Position numbers and translations under genes: made by a program. From assembly GCF_003574625.1 (NCBI RefSeq), contig NZ_QNUJ01000006.1:1-64000 (forward strand): a DNA stretch of 64,000 nt, given 5' to 3'. Under the pieces are notes generated by a model that saw only the letters and a program-made list of their open reading frames with translations, was not told the DNA's origin and did no database searches. Below are positions 1-8,080 of the stretch, in pieces. The first letter of the stretch is position 1. Every line of letters starts with the position of its first letter. This DNA is from Shinella zoogloeoides (lineage in GTDB: Bacteria > Pseudomonadota > Alphaproteobacteria > Rhizobiales > Rhizobiaceae).

Positions 1-182
1 GGACCGGCGATGACGATGCGCTCGCCTTTCATGACCTTGAGGTTGATGTCGCGCAGAACGTGGAAGTCGCCGTACCACTTGTTCATGTTGGTGATCTCGA
101 CGGCGACGTCCGTTGCGGAGACCTGCATTCTTGTCGTGTCGGCATCGAGATCGTCGGCACGTACTACATTTTCGCCCGCCAT
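1..182 (-). CDS. Amino-acid ABC transporter ATP-binding protein (AapP/GlnQ type), 3' part missing
   Basis: This is the first ~60 residues of an ATPase that energises polar amino-acid uptake. The fragment begins MAGENVVRADDL, carries the family signature MNKWYGDFHVLRDINL, and runs off the window at ...IVIAGP, just before the Walker A loop. It is the last visible gene of the minus-strand operon that starts at 8080 and supplies the ATPase for the two permeases and binding protein upstream. The extended acidic N-terminus is typical of Aap-type ATPases. The family is clear. The substrate is inferred only from the operon. Confidence 0.85.
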   Translation of the reverse strand, partial: MAGENVVRADDLDADTTRMQVSATDVAVEITNMNKWYGDFHVLRDINLKVMKGERIVIAG

Positions 183-235
183 CGAGCATCCTCCTGCATT
201 GCTGCGCCTTGCCTCCTCGGCCGCGCGGTTGATCG

Positions 236-1558
236 TTAAAGAGTGGCCAGCACCTCGTCGCAGACCTGCAAAAGCTCGTCCGCGTCGGCGATGGAGAAGG
301 GCAGCGGCGGCCGGATCTTCAGCACATGGCCGAGCGGCCCGGATGCGCTGATGAGCACGCGGCGGCGGCGGAGCGCATTGACGAGGTCGCCCGCGGCGCC
401 AGGAGAGGGCGCGCCGTCGGCGCCGAGAATGTCGACGCCGAGGAAGAGACCCTGGCCGCGGACGTTGCCGATGGCACCGTGGCGCTTGGCCAGTGTTTCG
501 AAGCCGGCCTTCATATGCGCGCCGACCTTCGACGCATTCGCCAGCAGGTCCTCGTCCCGAAGGATATCGAGAACCGCCGTGGCTGCGGCGCAGGCGACCG
601 GGTTGCCGCCGAAGGTGTTGAAGTAGCGCGCCTCGCGGGCGAAGCGTTCCAGCACCTCCTCGCGCGCGACGACGCCGGCGATGGGATAGCCGTTGCCCAT
701 GGGCTTGCCCATGGTGACGAGGTCGGGCACCAGCCCGTGGCGCTGGAAGCCCCACATATGCGAGCCCATGCGGCCGAAGCCGGCCTGAACCTCGTCGGCG
801 ATGAAGAGGCCGCCTGCCTCGCGGATCGCGGCGACCGCGCCGGCAAGGAAGCCGGCCGGCTCCGAAAAGACGCCGTCGCTGGAGAAGATCGTGTCGACCA
901 GCAGAGCGGCGGGGCGGATGCCGTGGCGCTGCATGTCGGCGATGGCGGCGCGCACCTCGCGCTCGAAGAAGGCGCCGACCGCTTCCGGCGACCCGGCAAG
1001 GCGCGGATCGGGCGCGGCGACGGTGCGCACATCCACGGCCAGCGGCACGTTCAGGCCGAGGGACGGGGACATGGCGGCAATCGCGTGGCTGATGCCGTGA
1101 TAGGCGTTGGCGGTGACGATGAAGCCGGTGCCGCCGGTGTGGTTGCGGGCGATACGCAGGGCGAGGTCGTTCGCTTCGCTGCCGGTGCAGGTCAGCATCA
1201 GGCGGTTGGTCTCGGCCGGGAAATGGGCAAGCAGCCGCTCGGCATAGCCGACGATGCTCTCGTCGAGATAGCGCGTGTGCACGTTGAGCCGTGCGGCCTG
1301 CTCGGCGATGGCCGCGACGACGCGCGGGTGGCAATGGCCGACGCAGGGTACGTTGTTATAGGCGTCGAGATAGGCATTGCCCGCCGCATCGTAAAGGCGC
1401 ACGCCGCTCGCCCAGTCGAAATGCACCGGCTCCTCATAGAACATGCGGTAGGGCTGGCCGAGGACGCGCTGGCGGCGCTCCACGAGATCGCGCGTGCGCT
1501 CGTCGAGGTTTGCGGCGTTCGCGCTGTCGAACGCGTTGATCATCACGGGTACGCTCAT
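236..1558 (-). CDS. Class III PLP enzyme of the phospho-lyase/aminotransferase group, candidate 5-phosphohydroxylysine phospho-lyase
   Basis: A 440-residue fold-type I PLP enzyme. The PLP lysine is K285 in VTMGKPMGNG, with the cofactor aspartate D255 in IADEVQ. The segment YNNVPCVGHCHP (residues 67-78) and FNTFGGNPV resemble the AGXT2L/ETNPPL/PHYKPL phospho-lyases more than ordinary omega-aminotransferases. These enzymes eliminate phosphate and ammonia from phosphorylated amino alcohols. The ATG at 1558 is chosen because GAAGG lies 8-9 bases upstream; a GTG at 1567 overlaps that site. It lies 18 bp after the APH kinase gene and on the same operon. Kinase plus phospho-lyase suggests hydroxylysine breakdown. 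An ordinary aminotransferase role remains possible. Confidence 0.85.
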   Translation of the reverse strand: MSVPVMINAFDSANAANLDERTRDLVERRQRVLGQPYRMFYEEPVHFDWASGVRLYDAAGNAYLDAYNNVPCVGHCHPRVVAAIAEQAARLNVHTRYLDESIVGYAERLLAHFPAETNRLMLTCTGSEANDLALRIARNHTGGTGFIVTANAYHGISHAIAAMSPSLGLNVPLAVDVRTVAAPDPRLAGSPEAVGAFFEREVRAAIADMQRHGIRPAALLVDTIFSSDGVFSEPAGFLAGAVAAIREAGGLFIADEVQAGFGRMGSHMWGFQRHGLVPDLVTMGKPMGNGYPIAGVVAREEVLERFAREARYFNTFGGNPVACAAATAVLDILRDEDLLANASKVGAHMKAGFETLAKRHGAIGNVRGQGLFLGVDILGADGAPSPGAAGDLVNALRRRRVLISASGPLGHVLKIRPPLPFSIADADELLQVCDEVLATL

Positions 1559-1576
1559 GGCATGCACCTTCGTTCT

Positions 1577-2566
1577 CTAGAGGGCGGTCCTGAATGGATC
1601 TTGCGGAAACGACGACAGCCGCTCCAGCCGCATCCAGGAGGCGGGATTGTTCTTCATGATATAGGGGCGGTTGACCGGGTCGCGGTCCGCGAGGATTTCC
1701 GTGACCACGACATTGATCACGCAGCGCGCGATCATGAATTCCGGCAGAAGCTCGATCTCCAGCGCCTCCAGCGGCGAGGCCCGGTGATAGGCGCTGATGA
1801 CATCGGCGGCATCTCGCAGATCATCCTCTCCGCCGCGAACCTGCAGCAGCGCCGCGCCGGCGAGATCGACGAGACGGGGCGCGTGGACGAGATCGCCGAA
1901 ATCGAGGAAGCCGGAAAGACGGTCCGTCGCATCGCTGTCGACGAGGATATTCTGGCCGTTCATGTCGCTATGGACGGCCTGCGCGGGCAGTGCGGCCATG
2001 TGCGGCCCCGCGGCCGCCTCGAAGCGGTCGAGCATGGCTTCGGCGAGCGGCCGGCGCGCCTCGTCGATCAGCGTCAGGAAGGGGCGCAGACGGGCGATGT
2101 GCTTGACGTCCCAGATGAGGTCGCGCTCGCGCGAAAAGGGATGATAGAAGCTCGCCAGCGCCATGTCGAGACGGGCGACGGCGTCTCCAATGGCGTGGCG
2201 CAGTGTTGGCGTCGGTGCCTCAATGAAGGAAAACGGCGTGCCTTCGAGATAGGTCAGCAGGCGCAGGTAGCGGCCATCTTCAGTGCCGAGGAAGACGGCC
2301 TCTTCGCCGGTGAGGGCGGGCACGACGCGCGGGGCTGCGATATCAGGGGCGGTGTGCGCAATGTGGAGAAGCGCGGCGCTTTCGAGCATCGTGCCGTCGG
2401 CGCTTTCCGCGGGGTCCGAGACCTTCAGCGTAAAGGAAACGCCCTCGGCCGTGCGGATGCGGAAATTCTGGGTGCGCTCGCCGCCAAGCTCCGTCGCGCG
2501 GCCATCTACGCCGAAATGGCGAAGGGCGAGGGCTTCGGCCTTCGCGGTATCGAGCCGCGCCGTCAT
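1577..2566 (-). CDS. APH-fold small-molecule kinase, hydroxylysine-kinase-like
   Basis: A 329-residue aminoglycoside-phosphotransferase-fold kinase. The catalytic loop is HSDMNGQN (D201) and the metal-binding motif LDFGD ends at D225. The block LIWDVKHIARLRPFL and NILVDSD...GFLDFGD resemble vertebrate hydroxylysine kinase (HYKK/AGPHD1) and the APH domains found beside class III aminotransferases in bacteria. It would phosphorylate the hydroxyl of an amino alcohol so that the next gene's enzyme can eliminate the phosphate. Its ATG overlaps the stop of the GntR gene (ATGA), so translation is coupled. Homoserine-kinase-like or ethanolamine-type substrates cannot be excluded from sequence alone. 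Confidence 0.82.
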   Translation of the reverse strand: MTARLDTAKAEALALRHFGVDGRATELGGERTQNFRIRTAEGVSFTLKVSDPAESADGTMLESAALLHIAHTAPDIAAPRVVPALTGEEAVFLGTEDGRYLRLLTYLEGTPFSFIEAPTPTLRHAIGDAVARLDMALASFYHPFSRERDLIWDVKHIARLRPFLTLIDEARRPLAEAMLDRFEAAAGPHMAALPAQAVHSDMNGQNILVDSDATDRLSGFLDFGDLVHAPRLVDLAGAALLQVRGGEDDLRDAADVISAYHRASPLEALEIELLPEFMIARCVINVVVTEILADRDPVNRPYIMKNNPASWMRLERLSSFPQDPFRTAL

Positions 2567-3264
2567 TCGTCCGCTCCCTGGAAGGAATCCGCGAGGATGC
2601 CGAAGCAGTTGACGACGTCGGAGACGACGGCCCTGCGCGCGGCCGCCGCGTCGTTTGCGGCGATGGCGGCGAAGGCCGTCTCATGGTCGGGAATGGCGTC
2701 GGTCAGCTTGCCGGGCTCTGCTTTGGCGAGGCGCACCGATGGCCCCATGCGCAGCCAGAGCGGTTCGATCATGTCGCGCAGGATCGGCGAGTTGCTCATG
2801 TCGGCGATATGCAGGTGGAAGCGGGCATTGGCACGCAAGAACCGGCTGGTGTCGTTGGCGTGCGCGGCTTCCGCCATGGCGTCGAAATGGACGCGCAGGC
2901 CCGCAAGGCTCTCGGGCGTTGCCGCCCGTGCCGCACGGGCGGCGGAAAGGCCTTCCAGCGCCACGCGGATATCGCGGATCTCCGTGAGTTCCGCGATGGT
3001 CAGCAGCGGCACGATGAAGGTGCGCTCGAGCCGCAGGGCACCGAGGCTTTCGAGCTTCTGCAGCGCATCGCGCACGGGCACCACGCTGGTTCCGAGGGCG
3101 GCGGCGAGGTTTCTGAGGACCAGCCGGTCACCGGGGCGGAATTCCCCGATGATCAGCTTCTCCTTGATCTGCTGGTAGATCTGCTCGTTGAGGGTATCCT
3201 GGACGAGCGTCCGGTAGGTGGGCATGGAGCCGCCGTCCGCCAGCGCGATTTCCTTCCTGTCCAT
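2563..3264 (-). CDS. GntR-family (FCD) transcriptional regulator, probable operon repressor
   Basis: 233 residues. The N-terminal winged helix reads LIIGEFRPGDRLVLRNLAAA...SVVPVRDALQKLESLG, and is followed by a helical FCD ligand-binding domain with the metal-site pattern D..FH..I (RFHLHIADMSN). It starts 2 bp after the permease stop codon. An alternative ATG at 3225 (MPTYRTLVQD) would also give a normal GntR protein. Encoded inside the transport/catabolic operon, it is likely an autoregulator responding to the substrate or an intermediate. The palindrome at 8119-8128 ahead of the operon is a candidate operator. Confidence 0.88.
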   Translation of the reverse strand: MDRKEIALADGGSMPTYRTLVQDTLNEQIYQQIKEKLIIGEFRPGDRLVLRNLAAALGTSVVPVRDALQKLESLGALRLERTFIVPLLTIAELTEIRDIRVALEGLSAARAARAATPESLAGLRVHFDAMAEAAHANDTSRFLRANARFHLHIADMSNSPILRDMIEPLWLRMGPSVRLAKAEPGKLTDAIPDHETAFAAIAANDAAAARRAVVSDVVNCFGILADSFQGADE

Positions 3265-3266
3265 GC

Positions 3267-4346
3267 CTAGTGCTTCTCGCTGGAGAACTCCCGCTCGAGG
3301 CGGCGGGAATGGAGGGAGAGGATGAAGCAGAAGATGAAGAAGGCACCGCCGACGACAAGGTAGGCCTCGCGGTAGAAGCCCAGCCATGCGCCGTCGGCGA
3401 TGGCCCCGCGTGCTCCGCCAAGCACGTCGATGAGGCCGATGATGCTGATCAGCGTCGTGTCCTTGATGGACTCGATGAAGGTGTTGATGATCGCCGGCAG
3501 CGCGATGCGGAAGGCCTGCGGCAGCACGATGAGGCGGGAGATCAGGCCGCTGGAAAGCCCGAGGCTGTGGCCGGCCTCCGACTGGCCGCGCGGCACGGCT
3601 TCGAGACCGCCGCGGATCGCTTCTGCCAGATAGGCCGCCTGGAAGAGGATCAGCGCCACCTGCGCGCGCAGGATATTGTCGATCAGGTTGCCGCCGGGCA
3701 GCAGGAAGGGCAGCATGGTTGAGGCGATGAATAGCACCGCGATCAGCGGCAGGCCGCGCACGATCTCCACATAGAGCGAGCAGAATCGGCGGATGACGGC
3801 GGCCTTGGAGCGGCGGCCGAGCACAATGAAGACCGACAGCGGCAGGGCGAGCACGATGCCGAAGGCGGAAAGGCCGACGGTGAGCGGCAGGCCGCCCCAG
3901 CGGCTGGTGGAAACCGAGGGCAGGCCGAGGATGCCGCCACCCATCAGGACGAGGCTGATCACCATGACGGCGATCCAGGCGAGCGCGAGCGCCGGTTTCC
4001 AGAAGCGGCGGAAGCCGCTGAGGATGAGGATCGCGAGCACCAGCACGACGGCGAGCGTCGGGCGCCAGTACTGGTCGGCCGGATAGCTGCCGAAGAGGAT
4101 GATGTGGTAGCGCTCGTGCAGGAAGGCCCAGCAGGCGCCCGCCGCCGCGCGGCAGGTATCGGGAGAGGCTTGTCCGAACACGGCATCGGTGACGGCCCAG
4201 CGGTAGAAGCGCGCGAGGACGTAGACGAGGCTGCCGGTGATCGCCACCGTCAGCAGGGCATGCGGCCACGGATTAAAGTAGGGGCGCAGCCAGCCGGCGA
4301 GGCCGCCATTGGAGGGGCGGGGGAGTGCGGCGGTAATTTCGCTCAT
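3267..4346 (-). CDS. Amino-acid ABC transporter permease (AapM type)
   Basis: A 359-residue inner-membrane permease with several hydrophobic segments and the HisMQ-type cytoplasmic EAA loop (EAIRGGLEAVPRGQSEAGHS...LPQAFRIALP). The long N-terminal extension before the core permease domain is characteristic of AapM rather than the short HisM/GlnP proteins. Its ATG overlaps the upstream permease stop by four bases (ATGA). It pairs with the next permease to form the transmembrane heterodimer. Confidence 0.92.
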   Translation of the reverse strand: MSEITAALPRPSNGGLAGWLRPYFNPWPHALLTVAITGSLVYVLARFYRWAVTDAVFGQASPDTCRAAAGACWAFLHERYHIILFGSYPADQYWRPTLAVVLVLAILILSGFRRFWKPALALAWIAVMVISLVLMGGGILGLPSVSTSRWGGLPLTVGLSAFGIVLALPLSVFIVLGRRSKAAVIRRFCSLYVEIVRGLPLIAVLFIASTMLPFLLPGGNLIDNILRAQVALILFQAAYLAEAIRGGLEAVPRGQSEAGHSLGLSSGLISRLIVLPQAFRIALPAIINTFIESIKDTTLISIIGLIDVLGGARGAIADGAWLGFYREAYLVVGGAFFIFCFILSLHSRRLEREFSSEKH

Positions 4347-5467
4347 GACTTCACCAGTTGCGCGCGCTTTTCCAGCCAGCGGATGACCGCGGAGGTCACG
4401 AGGCTGAGCGACAGGTAGATCAGAAGGTAGATGGACACGGTCTCGATGGCCCGGCCGGTCTGGTTGAGCGCGGTGTTGCCGACGGAAACCAGGTCCGGAT
4501 AGCCGATGAGAACGGCGAGCGTCGTGTTCTTGATGGCGTTGAGATACTGGTTGGCGAGCGGCGGCAGCATGAGCCGCATCGCCTGCGGGGCGAGCACCAG
4601 ATAGAGCGTCAGGATGGGGCTGAGGCCGAGCGAATGGGCGGCCTCCGACTGGCCTTTGGGCAGGGCGGCGAGGCTGCCCCGCACGATCTCGGCGATGAAG
4701 CCGGACGTATAGAACGAGAGCCCCACCAGCATTGCCAGATATTCCGGCGTCATGCCCATGCCGCCGCGGAAGTTGAAGCCCATCAGCGTCGGCTTCTGGA
4801 TCTCGCCCCAGCCGAGCGCATAGACGATGACGCCGATGAGCGCGGCGGCCGAGAGGAACAGGCCGCTGGTCGCGGGCCGCGGGAAGTGCCCCGTCTCGTT
4901 GCGGCCGTGCACCATGGCGCGCCAGAAGAGGAAGCCGCAGGCGAGGGCCAGCACGGCGACGGCGGCAAGGACCGGACCTGCATCGCCGACGAGCACCGTC
5001 GGGATATAGAGGCCTCGGCTGGAAATGAAGATGGATTCCCCGAAGGTCCAGGCCTGGCGCGGCGGCGGCAGAACGCGGACGGCGGTGGCGCAGACGACGA
5101 GGATGAGCAGCAGCGGCGTGTTGCGCGTCACCTCGATATAGGCTTTCGCGAGGGCACGGAGCTGCGGGTGGGCGGTGCGGCCCGCAAGGCCGATCAGGAT
5201 GCCGAGCAGGGTGGAGAGCACGATGGCGGCAAGCGCCAGCTTGACCGTGTTGAGCAACCCGACGAGCAGCGCCCGGAAATAGGTGTCGCCCGACCCGAAG
5301 GAGATCAGCGACTCGCCGATCGGGAACGACGTGGCGCTCCACAGGAAGCCGTAGTCGATGCTGATGCCGCGGGCGGCGAGGTTGGACGCAAGATTGTGCG
5401 ACAGCCACGCAAGAACTGCGATGGCTGCCGCGACAAACAGCGCGTTTTGAAGGCGCTCGCTACGCAT
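4343..5467 (-). CDS. Amino-acid ABC transporter permease (AapQ type)
   Basis: 374 residues, multi-spanning. It carries the EAA loop EIVRGSLAALPKGQSEAAHSLG followed by LAPQAMRLMLPPLANQYLN, and TRNTPLLL earlier, as in AapQ. The chosen ATG at 5467 (MRSERLQNALF) overlaps the stop codon of the binding-protein gene as TGATG. A longer frame reaching 5509 would overlap that gene and lacks family similarity. It is the second half of the permease heterodimer of this operon. Confidence 0.92.
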   Translation of the reverse strand: MRSERLQNALFVAAAIAVLAWLSHNLASNLAARGISIDYGFLWSATSFPIGESLISFGSGDTYFRALLVGLLNTVKLALAAIVLSTLLGILIGLAGRTAHPQLRALAKAYIEVTRNTPLLLILVVCATAVRVLPPPRQAWTFGESIFISSRGLYIPTVLVGDAGPVLAAVAVLALACGFLFWRAMVHGRNETGHFPRPATSGLFLSAAALIGVIVYALGWGEIQKPTLMGFNFRGGMGMTPEYLAMLVGLSFYTSGFIAEIVRGSLAALPKGQSEAAHSLGLSPILTLYLVLAPQAMRLMLPPLANQYLNAIKNTTLAVLIGYPDLVSVGNTALNQTGRAIETVSIYLLIYLSLSLVTSAVIRWLEKRAQLVKS

Positions 5468-6510
5468 CAACGCAACGGGGCCGCATACATGAGACCGCCC
5501 TTCGTCCACAGGTCGTTGAGACCGCGGTCGAGCTTGAGGGGCGAAGCCTTGCCGAGATTGCGTTCGAAGCTCTCGCCGTAGTTGCCGACGGACGAGACGA
5601 TCTTGACAACCCAGTCTTCCGAGAGGCCGAGATCCTTGCCGTTGCCCGGGGTCGTGCCGAGCAGCTGCTTGACTTCCGGATCCGGGGAGTTCTTGGCGAG
5701 ATCCGCGACATTGGCCTGCGTGATGCCGAGACGTTCGGTTTCGACGAGGGCGAACATGACCCAGCGCGCGACGAGGAAGAGTTCTTCGTCACCGCTCTTC
5801 ACGGCCGGTGCGTAGGGCTCCAGCGTGATGAAGTTCGGGAAGATGATGTAGTCGTCGACATTGCCGTTGCCCGCGCGCGAGCCGGCGAGGTTGCCGTAGT
5901 TGCCGCCGAAGGCGTCGCAACGACCGCCGAAGAAGGCCGCGTCGAGCTGTTCCCAGGCGCTGAGGACGAGCGGCGTGTAGTTGAGGCCGCGCGACTTGAA
6001 GAAGTTCTCGGTGTTCACTTCGAAGGTCGAACCCTGCAGGATGCAGACGGTGGCGTCAGCAAGCTGGTCCGGGCTGTCGACGCCGAGCGACTTCGGCACC
6101 ATGAAGGTGTAGCCGTCGAAATAGTTCGGCGAGGCGAAACGCGCGCTCTGGGCGCCTTCGCGGTTGAGCGTGGTCGTCGTGTCGTGCGCCAGCACGTCGA
6201 TCTCGCCCGAGGAAAGCAGGACGAAACGCTCGGAATAGGAGGTCTGGCGGTAGGTCACCTTGGAGGCGTCGCCGAGAATAGCGGCAGCCATGGACTTGCA
6301 GTAGTCGACGTCGATGCCGGCGAGCTCGCCATTGGCAGCAGGAGCGGAAAAGCCCGGAACGGCCTGGCCGACGCCGCAGACGAGATTGCCGCGGGCCTTG
6401 ATGGCGTCGAGCGCGGCACCGGCCTCGGCGGTGCCGGCGAAGGACATGGCGCCCATCAGCGCGGTCGCGCAGGCGAGAACTCCCAGTTTCAGTGAATTCG
6501 CAAGTTTCAT
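5467..6510 (-). CDS. Periplasmic amino-acid-binding protein (AapJ type)
   Basis: 347 residues beginning with a clear signal peptide (MKLANSLKLGVLACATALMG...AEA). The family-3 solute-binding fold is indicated by GVGQAVPGFSAPAANGELAGID, DVLAHDTTTTLNREG and the AapJ-like C-terminus LGLSEDWVVKIVSSVGNYGE. A strong Shine-Dalgarno, AAGGGG, lies upstream of the ATG. It is the specificity component of the ABC transporter in this operon. The catabolic genes suggest the ligand is a hydroxylated basic amino acid, but nothing in the sequence proves this. Confidence 0.93.
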   Translation of the reverse strand: MKLANSLKLGVLACATALMGAMSFAGTAEAGAALDAIKARGNLVCGVGQAVPGFSAPAANGELAGIDVDYCKSMAAAILGDASKVTYRQTSYSERFVLLSSGEIDVLAHDTTTTLNREGAQSARFASPNYFDGYTFMVPKSLGVDSPDQLADATVCILQGSTFEVNTENFFKSRGLNYTPLVLSAWEQLDAAFFGGRCDAFGGNYGNLAGSRAGNGNVDDYIIFPNFITLEPYAPAVKSGDEELFLVARWVMFALVETERLGITQANVADLAKNSPDPEVKQLLGTTPGNGKDLGLSEDWVVKIVSSVGNYGESFERNLGKASPLKLDRGLNDLWTKGGLMYAAPLR

Positions 6511-6586
6511 GTATTTCCCCTTTTCATGCGCATTCAGGTGAGGCCCGCAGGCACCATTGCCGGCGGGCTGCATTTCCGGCGGGCCG

Positions 6587-8080
6587 TCAGGCTGCCGATT
6601 GGGTGATGCAGACGTATTTGAGCTCGAGGAATTCCTCGATGCCGTATTTGGAGCCTTCGCGGCCGATGCCGGATTCCTTCACGCCGCCGAAGGGCGCGAC
6701 CTCGTTCGACACCAGGCCCTCGTTGACGCCGACAATGCCGGACTCGATCTGCTCGGCGACCCGCCACATGCGGTCGAGGTCGCGGGTGAAAATGTAGGCG
6801 GCAAGGCCGGAGGCGGTGGCGTTCGCGGCCTTGATGACGCTCTTCTCATCGGAGAAGCGCTGGACCGGGGCGACGGGACCGAAGGTCTCCTCGCTCTCGA
6901 AGAGCATGGTGGCATCGACATCCGTCAGCACGGTCGGCTCGAAGAAGGTCTGGCCGAGGCCGTGGCGCTTGCCGCCGGTGGCCACCTTCGCGCCCTTACC
7001 GAGTGCGTCCGCCACATGACGTTCGACCTTTGTGAGAGCCGCTTCGTTGATCAGCGGGCCCTGCTGCACGCCGTCGACGAAGCCGTCGCCGACCTTCAGC
7101 GCACCGACGGCTGCCGAAAGGCGGGCGACGAAGGCGTCGTGGACGTTTTCATGCACATAGATGCGGTTCGGGCAGATGCAGGTCTGTCCGGTGTTGCGGA
7201 ATTTCGCGTTGATGACGCCCTGCACGGCGACGTCGAGATCGGCGTCTTCGAAGACGATGAGGGGGGCATTGCCGCCGAGCTCCATCGCCACCTTTTTCAC
7301 GGTGCTGGCCGACTGTTCCATCAGCAGCTTGCCGACGCGGGTGGAGCCGGTGAAGCTGATCTTGCGCACGATCGGGCTAGAGGTCATCTCGCCGCCAATG
7401 GCCGTTGCGTCACCCGTAACGATGTTGAAGACGCCCTTGGGAATACCGGCGCGTTCGGCAAGCTCGGCCAGCGCCAGCGCCGAATAGGGCGTGAATTCGG
7501 AGGGCTTGACCACGACGGAGCAGCCGGCGGCGAAGGCCGGGGCGCATTTGCGGGTGATCATGGCCGAGGGGAAGTTCCACGGCGTGATGGCGGCGACGAC
7601 GCCGATAGGCTGCTTGAGCACCATGATGCGGGACTGGGCGCGCGGGGCGGGGATCAGGTCGCCATAGGCACGCTTGGCCTCTTCCGAGAACCATTCGGCG
7701 AAAGAAGCGGCATAGCGGATTTCGCCCTGGCTCTCGGTCAGCGGCTTGCCCTGCTCGGCGGTCATGATGGACGCGAGATCGGGAAGGTTTGCGACGATCA
7801 GGTCGAACCAGCGGCGCAGCACGACGGCGCGGTCCTTGGCAGCCAGCGCCGCCCAGCCATGACGGGCTTCTTCCGCCGCCTCGATGGCGCGGCGGGTCTC
7901 GGCGGCGCCCATGTTCGGTACCGTGCCGATCTCGATGCCCGTCGCCGGATCGGTCACGGTGACCGTATCGCCGCCATCGGCATTCACCCATTGCCCGTCG
8001 ATATAGGCCTGATGACGCAACAGGGAGGGGTCCGCCAGACGCCCGATAAGGGCGTGACGCGTAATTTGGTGCACGGTCAT
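6587..8080 (-). CDS. NAD(P)-dependent aldehyde dehydrogenase, succinate-semialdehyde-dehydrogenase family
   Basis: 497 residues with all catalytic residues of the GabD-type aldehyde dehydrogenases: N169 (ITPWNF), K192 (VKPSEF), general base E267 (MELGG) and nucleophile C301 (NTGQTC). By homology it would be called succinate-semialdehyde dehydrogenase. In this operon, beside the kinase and phospho-lyase, the more coherent substrate is 2-aminoadipate 6-semialdehyde, the product expected from phosphohydroxylysine. It is the first gene of the operon, 76 bp upstream of the binding-protein gene. Enzyme class is certain; substrate is inferred. Confidence 0.92.
   Translation of the reverse strand: MTVHQITRHALIGRLADPSLLRHQAYIDGQWVNADGGDTVTVTDPATGIEIGTVPNMGAAETRRAIEAAEEARHGWAALAAKDRAVVLRRWFDLIVANLPDLASIMTAEQGKPLTESQGEIRYAASFAEWFSEEAKRAYGDLIPAPRAQSRIMVLKQPIGVVAAITPWNFPSAMITRKCAPAFAAGCSVVVKPSEFTPYSALALAELAERAGIPKGVFNIVTGDATAIGGEMTSSPIVRKISFTGSTRVGKLLMEQSASTVKKVAMELGGNAPLIVFEDADLDVAVQGVINAKFRNTGQTCICPNRIYVHENVHDAFVARLSAAVGALKVGDGFVDGVQQGPLINEAALTKVERHVADALGKGAKVATGGKRHGLGQTFFEPTVLTDVDATMLFESEETFGPVAPVQRFSDEKSVIKAANATASGLAAYIFTRDLDRMWRVAEQIESGIVGVNEGLVSNEVAPFGGVKESGIGREGSKYGIEEFLELKYVCITQSAA

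What the first reader, a model, noticed from the sequence alone, without database searches (positions are those of the whole stretch)
1..8080. Candidate bacterial 5-hydroxylysine catabolic operon
Seen: one minus-strand operon with overlapping or near-overlapping genes encodes an Aap-type amino-acid transporter, a GntR regulator, an APH-fold kinase with HYKK-like motifs (HSDMNGQN, LDFGD), a class III PLP enzyme with the AGXT2L-like NNVPCVGHCHP block, and an SSADH-family dehydrogenase. Known: vertebrate hydroxylysine breakdown uses hydroxylysine kinase, then 5-phosphohydroxylysine phospho-lyase, giving 2-aminoadipate semialdehyde, which a dehydrogenase oxidises. Inference: the operon supplies uptake plus the same three steps, so the genes usually annotated as aminotransferase, phosphotransferase and GabD would form one pathway. 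Ethanolamine or another amino alcohol is the main alternative.
Basis: partly seen in the sequence, partly recalled or inferred. Interest (0 to 1): 0.75.

Follow-up and report, generated by a model that had tools for sequence, protein, structure and literature searches.

The report
Phosphorylate-then-eliminate amino-hydroxy-acid catabolic operon
A soil bacterium carries an operon that appears to import a small amino-hydroxy-acid, put a phosphate on it and then strip off phosphate and ammonia; the genes around it point to 4-amino-3-hydroxybutyrate rather than hydroxylysine as the food molecule, but no test has been done.

Summary
The operon is real (window 1-8080, minus strand): SSADH-type aldehyde dehydrogenase, Aap-type binding protein, two permeases, GntR, APH-fold kinase, class III PLP enzyme, ATPase (cut by the contig end). 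The PLP enzyme groups with phospho-lyases apart from 15 aminotransferase rows, and 77 of 80 loci collected by it have an APH-type kinase match within 4.5 kb. Kinase plus phospho-lyase is well supported; hydroxylysine is not. The dehydrogenase keeps all 8 ALDH5 residues checked. The binding protein has Asn where 30 of 31 generic relatives have Asp (10 of 10 operon-type). In Shinella sp. PSBB067 and four other genomes the same transporter/dehydrogenase/GntR set has no kinase/lyase in the locus but an omega-aminotransferase and a tartrate/D-malate dehydrogenase; the window genome has that pair on another contig, collinear with PSBB067. A compound giving succinate semialdehyde by phospho-elimination and malate semialdehyde by transamination is 4-amino-3-hydroxybutyrate (GABOB): my best, untested, explanation. 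A fused kinase-lyase gene elsewhere in this genome, beside a binding protein that keeps the Asp, is a better hydroxylysine candidate.

The parts
6587..8080 (-). aldehyde dehydrogenase, ALDH5/SSADH type (497 aa)
   Evidence: TIGR01780 707 bits (cut-off 646), PRK11241 746 bits (below its cut-off 828); nearest solved chains SSADH 4v6h, 3jz4, 8s33; 8 of 8 ALDH5 signature residues
5467..6510 (-). periplasmic binding protein, Aap-type, with remodelled ligand-site motifs (HDTTTT, GGN)
   Evidence: SBP_bac_3; nearest solved chain 4z9n; motif comparison
4343..5467 (-). ABC permease 1
   Evidence: BPD_transp_1; amino-acid permease models
3267..4346 (-). ABC permease 2
   Evidence: BPD_transp_1 (the query there began further upstream, at 4442)
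2563..3264 (-). GntR-family regulator
   Evidence: ORF; 91% identical to the gene annotated GntR in L222 and 93% to L039
1577..2566 (-). APH-fold small-molecule kinase (HSDMNGQN, FLDFGD)
   Evidence: PF01636 79 bits; kinase part of PRK06148 234 bits; only solved chain matched is homoserine kinase 2ppq, E 3e-4
236..1558 (-). class III PLP phospho-lyase family enzyme
   Evidence: 5g4i 386 bits, 6tor 311 bits, GabT 174 bits; trees
1..182 (-). ABC ATPase, first 60 codons; contig ends inside the gene at a stretch shared with contig C11
   Evidence: codons 130-267 at the end of contig C23

Best explanation
The operon imports and breaks down a short omega-amino acid with a hydroxyl next to the amine, most likely 4-amino-3-hydroxybutyrate (GABOB). 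Shown by sequence: uptake system, APH-fold kinase, phospho-lyase-family enzyme, ALDH5. Inferred: the kinase makes 3-phospho-GABOB; the PLP enzyme eliminates phosphate and ammonia to give succinate semialdehyde; the ALDH5 oxidises it to succinate. A second module of the same locus (omega-aminotransferase, then the same ALDH5, then tartrate/D-malate dehydrogenase and an Ldh-family oxidoreductase) would take GABOB through malate semialdehyde and malate to pyruvate or oxaloacetate, and stands alone in relatives whose locus lacks the kinase/lyase pair.
For: (1) PLP enzyme in the phospho-lyase family; APH-type kinase match within 4.5 kb in 77 of 80 PLP-collected loci. (2) ALDH5 residues R213, K214, E306, R334, C340, C342, S498, E515 (named in PMC11681614, passages; placing them on the window by motif is mine) kept in 9 of 9 operon-type ALDHs, 14 of 22 rows overall. 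(3) Binding protein: N in 10 of 10 distinct operon-type sequences where generic Aap-type ones have D (30 of 31, the other E); the motif Arg is kept in the 9 operon-type rows that cover it. (4) L222 (Shinella PSBB067): same ALDH-SBP(98%)-permeases-GntR-ATPase without kinase/lyase in the locus, then Ldh, tartrate dehydrogenase, aminotransferase, GntR2. (5) G108, G729, G290, G207: one-strand ALDH-SBP-perm-perm-GntR-AT-ATPase-TTC, no kinase/lyase in the 20 kb read. (6) The window genome has AT (96%) and TTC (97%) at the end of contig C23, collinear with L222. (7) TTC is TIGR02089, 563 bits, cut-off 470. (8) Parallel: in Acinetobacter, carnitine (trimethyl-GABOB, recalled chemistry) goes to malate semialdehyde in a cluster with a predicted tartrate dehydrogenase and a potential malate semialdehyde dehydrogenase (PMC6562126, passages). 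(9) TTC (87%) sits beside an SSADH-type ALDH with the full signature in R. leguminosarum L243.
Against: No assay and no ligand-bound structure. The role of the binding-protein Asp is recalled from related proteins, and Asp to Asn need not exclude an alpha-amino ligand. In the window lineage the AT-TTC module has its own GntR and the opposite strand, so it might serve another compound; L223 has the transporter and AT without this ALDH and without TTC. Kinase-lyase relatives sit in very different neighbourhoods (L046 with glutaryl-CoA dehydrogenase and succinate--glutarate CoA-transferase), so specificity varies in this family. AT relatives (at least 45% identical) lie within 9 kb of kinase-lyase pairs in 7 of 49 loci, 5 of them without this transporter, which could mean sequential rather than alternative steps. 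ALDH5 of the window type was found near the pair in only 3 of 49 such loci, all of them this same operon. GabD-like enzymes also take C5 substrates (recalled).
Confidence: 0.45

Rival explanations
1. One reading: uptake and breakdown of 5-hydroxy-L-lysine through 5-phosphohydroxylysine and 2-aminoadipate semialdehyde.
For: Kinase and phospho-lyase belong to the right superfamilies; amino-acid type ABC transporter.
Against: ALDH5, not the piperidine-6-carboxylate dehydrogenase type; binding-protein Asp lost; the AT+TTC replacement in sister loci would give no usable product from hydroxylysine (inference); the same genome has a better candidate for an alpha-amino acid substrate (fused gene plus a binding protein that keeps the Asp).
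Confidence: 0.12
2. Substrate is the C5 homologue 5-amino-4-hydroxyvalerate, giving glutarate semialdehyde and glutarate.
For: L046 (PLP 60% identical) has glutaryl-CoA dehydrogenase and succinate--glutarate CoA-transferase directly upstream on the same strand; GabD-type enzymes take glutarate semialdehyde (recalled).
Against: Transamination and oxidation would give 2-hydroxyglutarate, not a substrate for a beta-decarboxylating tartrate/malate dehydrogenase (chemistry, inference); GcdH and CoA-transferase relatives were found near the pair only in L046, 1 of 49 loci.
Confidence: 0.15
3. Substrate is a diamine or a more oxidised analogue, such as 2-hydroxyputrescine or 4-amino-2,3-dihydroxybutyrate, with AT and kinase/lyase perhaps working in sequence rather than as alternatives.
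For: AT relatives and kinase-lyase pairs share several unrelated loci (L228 and L242); relatives of the L056 binding protein, whose nearest solved chains include GABA sensors and an Atu polyamine/GABA-type protein, lie near the pair in 8 of 49 loci, L056 included.
Against: Five sister loci lack the kinase/lyase altogether, which does not suit an obligatory sequence; the window binding protein is Aap-type with its motif Arg kept, expected for a carboxylate (inference).
Confidence: 0.15
4. Ethanolamine or another simple amino alcohol without a carboxylate.
For: Nearest characterised relatives are a phospholyase and an ethanolamine-phosphate phospho-lyase.
Against: ALDH5 carboxylate-binding residues kept; amino-acid type transporter; another kinase type (C1) goes with the 5g4i clade.
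Confidence: 0.08

Closest known systems
Vertebrate hydroxylysine kinase and 5-phosphohydroxylysine / ethanolamine-phosphate phospho-lyases (Veiga-da-Cunha 2012, seen only as a reference in PMC8154272)
   Same: Kinase plus class III PLP phospho-lyase acting on a beta-amino alcohol; 6tor is the second nearest solved chain
   Different: Bacterial operon with transporter and ALDH5; substrate probably a C4 omega-amino-hydroxy acid; clade separate from the 6tor branch
Arthrobacter phospholyase 5g4i/5g4j (molecule name 'phospholyase'; organism and role in ethanolamine use recalled)
   Same: Same PLP family, nearest solved chain (386 bits)
   Different: Falls with PLP genes that sit beside a different APH kinase type (C1), often with an amino-acid permease
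Acinetobacter carnitine locus (PMC6562126, passages)
   Same: A predicted tartrate dehydrogenase and a potential malate semialdehyde dehydrogenase downstream of a 3-hydroxy-4-aminobutyrate skeleton
   Different: There the amine leaves as trimethylamine through a Rieske oxygenase; here, by inference, through transamination or phospho-elimination
GabT-GabD route for GABA (recalled)
   Same: Omega-amino acid to succinate semialdehyde to succinate; the dehydrogenase is GabD-like
   Different: Kinase plus lyase in place of GabT; no amino acceptor, one nucleoside triphosphate spent (inference)

Membership tests
Class III PLP phospho-lyase family (AGXT2L-type) | Groups with known phospho-lyases and away from omega-aminotransferases | tested here: met
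   24 lyase-family rows against 15 aminotransferase rows, one branch, 100/99
Class III PLP phospho-lyase family (AGXT2L-type) | Kinase partner encoded nearby | tested here: met
   window, and 77 of 80 PLP-collected loci
Class III PLP phospho-lyase family (AGXT2L-type) | Phospho-lyase activity, no transamination | not testable with these tools
   needs enzyme assay
ALDH5 (succinate semialdehyde dehydrogenase) | Signature R213, K214, E306, R334, C340, C342, S498, E515 | tested here: met
   (placement of the numbers by motif is mine)
ALDH5 (succinate semialdehyde dehydrogenase) | Subfamily model above cut-off | tested here: met
   TIGR01780 707 against 646; the narrower equivalog PRK11241 is below its cut-off, 746 against 828
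Hydroxylysine catabolic pathway (kinase, phospho-lyase, AASA dehydrogenase) | Dehydrogenase of the AASA / piperidine-6-carboxylate type | tested here: not met
   best models are SSADH; pip_6_carb_DH 269 bits, cut-off 730
Hydroxylysine catabolic pathway (kinase, phospho-lyase, AASA dehydrogenase) | Transporter for an alpha-amino acid | tested here: inconclusive
   family fits, but the Asp of the ligand site is Asn in 10 of 10 operon-type sequences; its role is recalled
Hydroxylysine catabolic pathway (kinase, phospho-lyase, AASA dehydrogenase) | Kinase acts on 5-hydroxylysine | not testable with these tools
   needs enzyme assay
Aap-type amino-acid ABC transporter | SBP_bac_3 protein, two permeases and ATPase in one operon | tested here: met

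The most novel reading that the evidence does not exclude
A dedicated GABOB locus with two interchangeable deamination modules behind one transporter and one dehydrogenase: transamination to malate semialdehyde, or phosphorylation and elimination to succinate semialdehyde. The kinase/lyase pair would be a cassette that comes and goes between GntR and the ATPase gene, and would show that hydroxylysine-type kinase/phospho-lyase chemistry has been put to use on small hydroxy-omega-amino acids.
Probability: 0.38. Interest if true: 0.65.

Novelty: new variant of a known kind. Interest (0 to 1): 0.52.

Why it matters
If true it gives a substrate and a route to a kinase plus class III PLP pair that recurs in many bacterial genomes and that the annotated plasmid records read here call phosphotransferase and aminotransferase. 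It would give a genetic basis for GABOB use in soil bacteria and show two chemically different ways of removing the same amine swapped at one locus. It also moves the hunt for bacterial hydroxylysine breakdown to fused kinase-lyase genes that pair with a binding protein of the ordinary Aap type.

Tried and rejected
Ethanolamine, hydroxylysine and the C5 acid were held against the dehydrogenase residues, binding-protein motifs and sister loci and ranked lower. Pfam scans of 20 chosen neighbours of other kinase-lyase pairs (20 of 1,676 ORFs called in 100 loci) gave no single shared pathway: contexts are diverse. Of plasmid kinase hits H1-H40, 10 were fetched (H1 and H3 have no annotation), with the same result. 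All 10 paper searches covered a bacterial hydroxylysine kinase pathway, phosphohydroxylysine, phospholyase operons, ethanolamine phospho-lyase, and GABOB or 4-amino-3-hydroxybutyrate breakdown. I saw only the listed rows (for some searches 12-20 of hundreds or thousands) and none was a paper on such an operon. The 2012 JBC paper (PMC3293546) is not held. Passages only were read of PMC8154272, PMC11681614, PMC2131755 (GABOB only in its reference list) and PMC6562126. The concatenated transporter/ALDH tree has weak inner support, so I do not decide whether the kinase/lyase pair was gained or lost in L222. The first PLP tree held one aminotransferase row only; I therefore added with 15.
Full report
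OBSERVATION. The window starts at base 1 of contig C24 of a 5.38 Mb genome. The contig probably breaks there because a second Aap-type locus carries the same stretch: the last 99 bases of contig C11 are identical to the first 99 of the window (127 are not).

CONSERVATION. The same gene order is found in Shinella sp. SUS2 (L039, also cut in the ATPase), Brucella rhizosphaerae (L040) and an Ochrobactrum quorumnocens plasmid (L160). Against the window, PLP identity is 88-93% and kinase identity 67-77%. The L040 kinase has one in-frame stop, and the L160 tartrate dehydrogenase matches only in three pieces, one with a stop. In 297 genomes of the same family the best kinase match outside the window genome is 39% identical; among 385 genomes of the class 10 passed E 1e-50, the window's own included, and the best other is 43%. 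A stand-alone paralogous pair (kinase 33%, PLP 59%) and a fused gene (PLP part 44%) lie elsewhere in the same genome.

KINASE AND PHOSPHO-LYASE. The PLP enzyme's best solved relatives are 5g4i (phospholyase, 386 bits) and 6tor (ethanolamine-phosphate phospho-lyase, 311 bits); GabT follows at 174 bits. In a first tree of 114 rows it sits in a 57-row set (SH-aLRT 98) in which 45 rows have the window's kinase type nearby; that tree held one aminotransferase, on a very long branch. A second, careful tree of 39 rows with 15 aminotransferases puts all 24 lyase-family rows on one side of one branch (100/99, 200 of 200 bootstrap trees as reported). An APH-type kinase match lies within 4.5 kb in 107 of 110 loci; 30 of those were collected through the kinase, and in the 80 collected through the PLP enzyme it is 77 of 80. 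Activity itself is not shown.

WHY NOT HYDROXYLYSINE. First, the dehydrogenase is ALDH5: TIGR01780 707 bits against a cut-off of 646, while the piperidine-6-carboxylate dehydrogenase model gets 269 of 730. Of the ALDH5 residues named in PMC11681614 (passages) three bind the carboxy group of succinate semialdehyde. All eight checked are kept in 9 of 9 operon-type ALDHs; over all 22 rows compared 14 have the full set and 8 do not. Second, the binding protein: in 30 of 31 distinct generic Aap-type sequences among the loci at hand the ligand-site motif has Asp (the other has Glu); in 10 of 10 operon-type ones it is Asn. The Arg of the first motif stays and Trp becomes Thr in the 9 operon-type rows that cover it. 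That this Asp holds the alpha-ammonium is recalled from related proteins, not tested. Both points suggest a ligand with a carboxylate but no alpha-amine (inference).

THE SISTER LOCI. Shinella sp. PSBB067 carries, on a plasmid, the same ALDH (93%), SBP (98%), permeases and GntR, then directly the ATPase, with no kinase or lyase in the locus. After the ATPase come an Ldh-family oxidoreductase and, on the other strand, genes annotated tartrate dehydrogenase and aminotransferase, then a second GntR. They are the only matches at E 1e-110 or better besides the window's own among 394 family genomes; among 385 of the class there was only the window's own. L040 and L160 have both sets. Sinorhizobium americanum (L223) has the transporter, GntR, ATPase, AT and GntR2 but neither this ALDH nor TTC, and a separate kinase 30% / PLP 52% pair about 8-10 kb away. 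The window genome has AT (96%), TTC (97%), Ldh (93%) and the end of the ATPase at the end of contig C23; the ends of C23 and the window match L222 collinearly at 92% over 2,598 and 93% over 5,591 bases. The inferred full order is ALDH-SBP-perm-perm-GntR-kinase-PLP-ATPase-Ldh, then TTC-AT on the opposite strand, then GntR2. ATPase residues 61-129 fall in the gap, so that the two contigs are neighbours is an inference from L222.

READING. TTC belongs to the tartrate dehydrogenase model TIGR02089 (563 bits against 470); that this family also takes D-malate is recalled. The Ldh protein is of the type 2 malate/lactate dehydrogenase family (1vbi, 1v9n; its only NCBIfam match is sulfolactate dehydrogenase at 151 of 500 bits). 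The aminotransferase's nearest solved chains are 6tb1 and 6g4b (recalled as a Pseudomonas omega-transaminase of 6-aminohexanoate use). Aminotransferase, then ALDH5, then malate-type dehydrogenases suggests an omega-amino-hydroxy acid ending as malate. Kinase, then phospho-lyase, then ALDH5 suggests an amine next to the hydroxyl and a product that ALDH5 takes. GABOB satisfies both: succinate semialdehyde by one route, malate semialdehyde by the other. An acid made in the same way from hydroxylysine or 5-amino-4-hydroxyvalerate would lack the beta-carboxylate that TTC chemistry needs (chemistry, inference here). Acinetobacter carnitine breakdown, which reaches malate semialdehyde, has a predicted tartrate dehydrogenase and a potential malate semialdehyde dehydrogenase in its cluster (PMC6562126, passages). 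R. leguminosarum has the same TTC (87%) beside an SSADH-type ALDH with the full signature, and R. binae such an ALDH one gene away from a related aminotransferase.

AGAINST. No assay. AT and TTC have their own regulator and the opposite strand in the window lineage. AT relatives also lie near kinase-lyase pairs without this transporter in 5 of 49 loci, and in L228 and L242, which may mean consecutive steps on a diamine. The window-type ALDH was near the pair in 3 of 49 loci, all of them this operon, and TTC in 1 of 49. L046 shows a kinase-lyase pair behind glutaryl-CoA dehydrogenase and glutarate CoA-transferase genes, a C5 theme. The kinase-lyase family appears to be used for several substrates.

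A BETTER HYDROXYLYSINE CANDIDATE. The same genome has a fused kinase-lyase gene (L149, C21) whose PLP part falls with 6tor (100/98 with one Acidobacteria row). Next to it is an Aap-type binding protein with the ordinary motif (Trp, Arg and Asp present). Among 151 family genomes the ten best matches to that binding protein (65-100% identical; the next is 62%) all lie within about 4 kb of a kinase match, read by comparing coordinates; nine of those ten kinase frames exceed 1,000 aa, one (G147) is 641 aa. The reverse does not hold: by my hand count, of 34 listed kinase frames of at least 970 aa in these genomes 9 have it beside them and 25 do not. The motif was read only in L149, and no dehydrogenase was recognised beside L149.

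NOVELTY. A known chemistry, apparently on a new kind of substrate, with a swap of deamination modules. PMC8154272 (2021, passages) names ethanolamine-phosphate phospho-lyase and one closely related enzyme as the only lyases documented in the class III subgroup until then. None of the rows listed by ten paper searches in the open-licence library was a paper on such an operon; subscription papers were not searchable.

Noticed in passing
L149:6431-10633 (own genome C21, about 151430-155630): Fused kinase-lyase gene (about 1033 aa) with an Aap-type binding protein that keeps the Trp/Arg/Asp motif; the ten best matches of that binding protein in 151 family genomes all lie beside a kinase match, though 25 of 34 long kinase frames lack it. 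Better candidate for bacterial hydroxylysine breakdown than the window operon.
   Followed up: partly
L046:5433-11257: Aureimonas: glutaryl-CoA dehydrogenase, succinate--glutarate CoA-transferase, kinase and phospho-lyase in a row on one strand, with a divergent GcvA-like LysR gene, suggesting a kinase-lyase route into glutarate.
   Followed up: partly
L040:7366-8343 and L160:15331-16051: In B. rhizosphaerae the kinase has one in-frame stop while TTC is open; in O. quorumnocens TTC is in pieces while the kinase is open: reciprocal decay of the two modules, if not sequencing error.
   Followed up: partly
L168:7950-10336: A kinase/phospho-lyase pair with ABC transporter genes on a conjugative Pseudomonas plasmid, a few kb from a class 1 integron with resistance genes.
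   Followed up: no
window 1-182 and contigs C11, C23: The assembly breaks inside the ATPase gene at a stretch of at least 99 bases shared with contig C11; the locus is split over contigs C23 and C24.
   Followed up: yes
L049-L118, 58 loci: A second APH kinase type (C1) is the one nearby in 58 of 110 loci, among them those of the 5g4i clade; an amino-acid permease relative (at least 35% identical to that of L049) lies within 9 kb in 25 of these 58 against 0 of 49 loci of the window's kinase type.
   Followed up: partly
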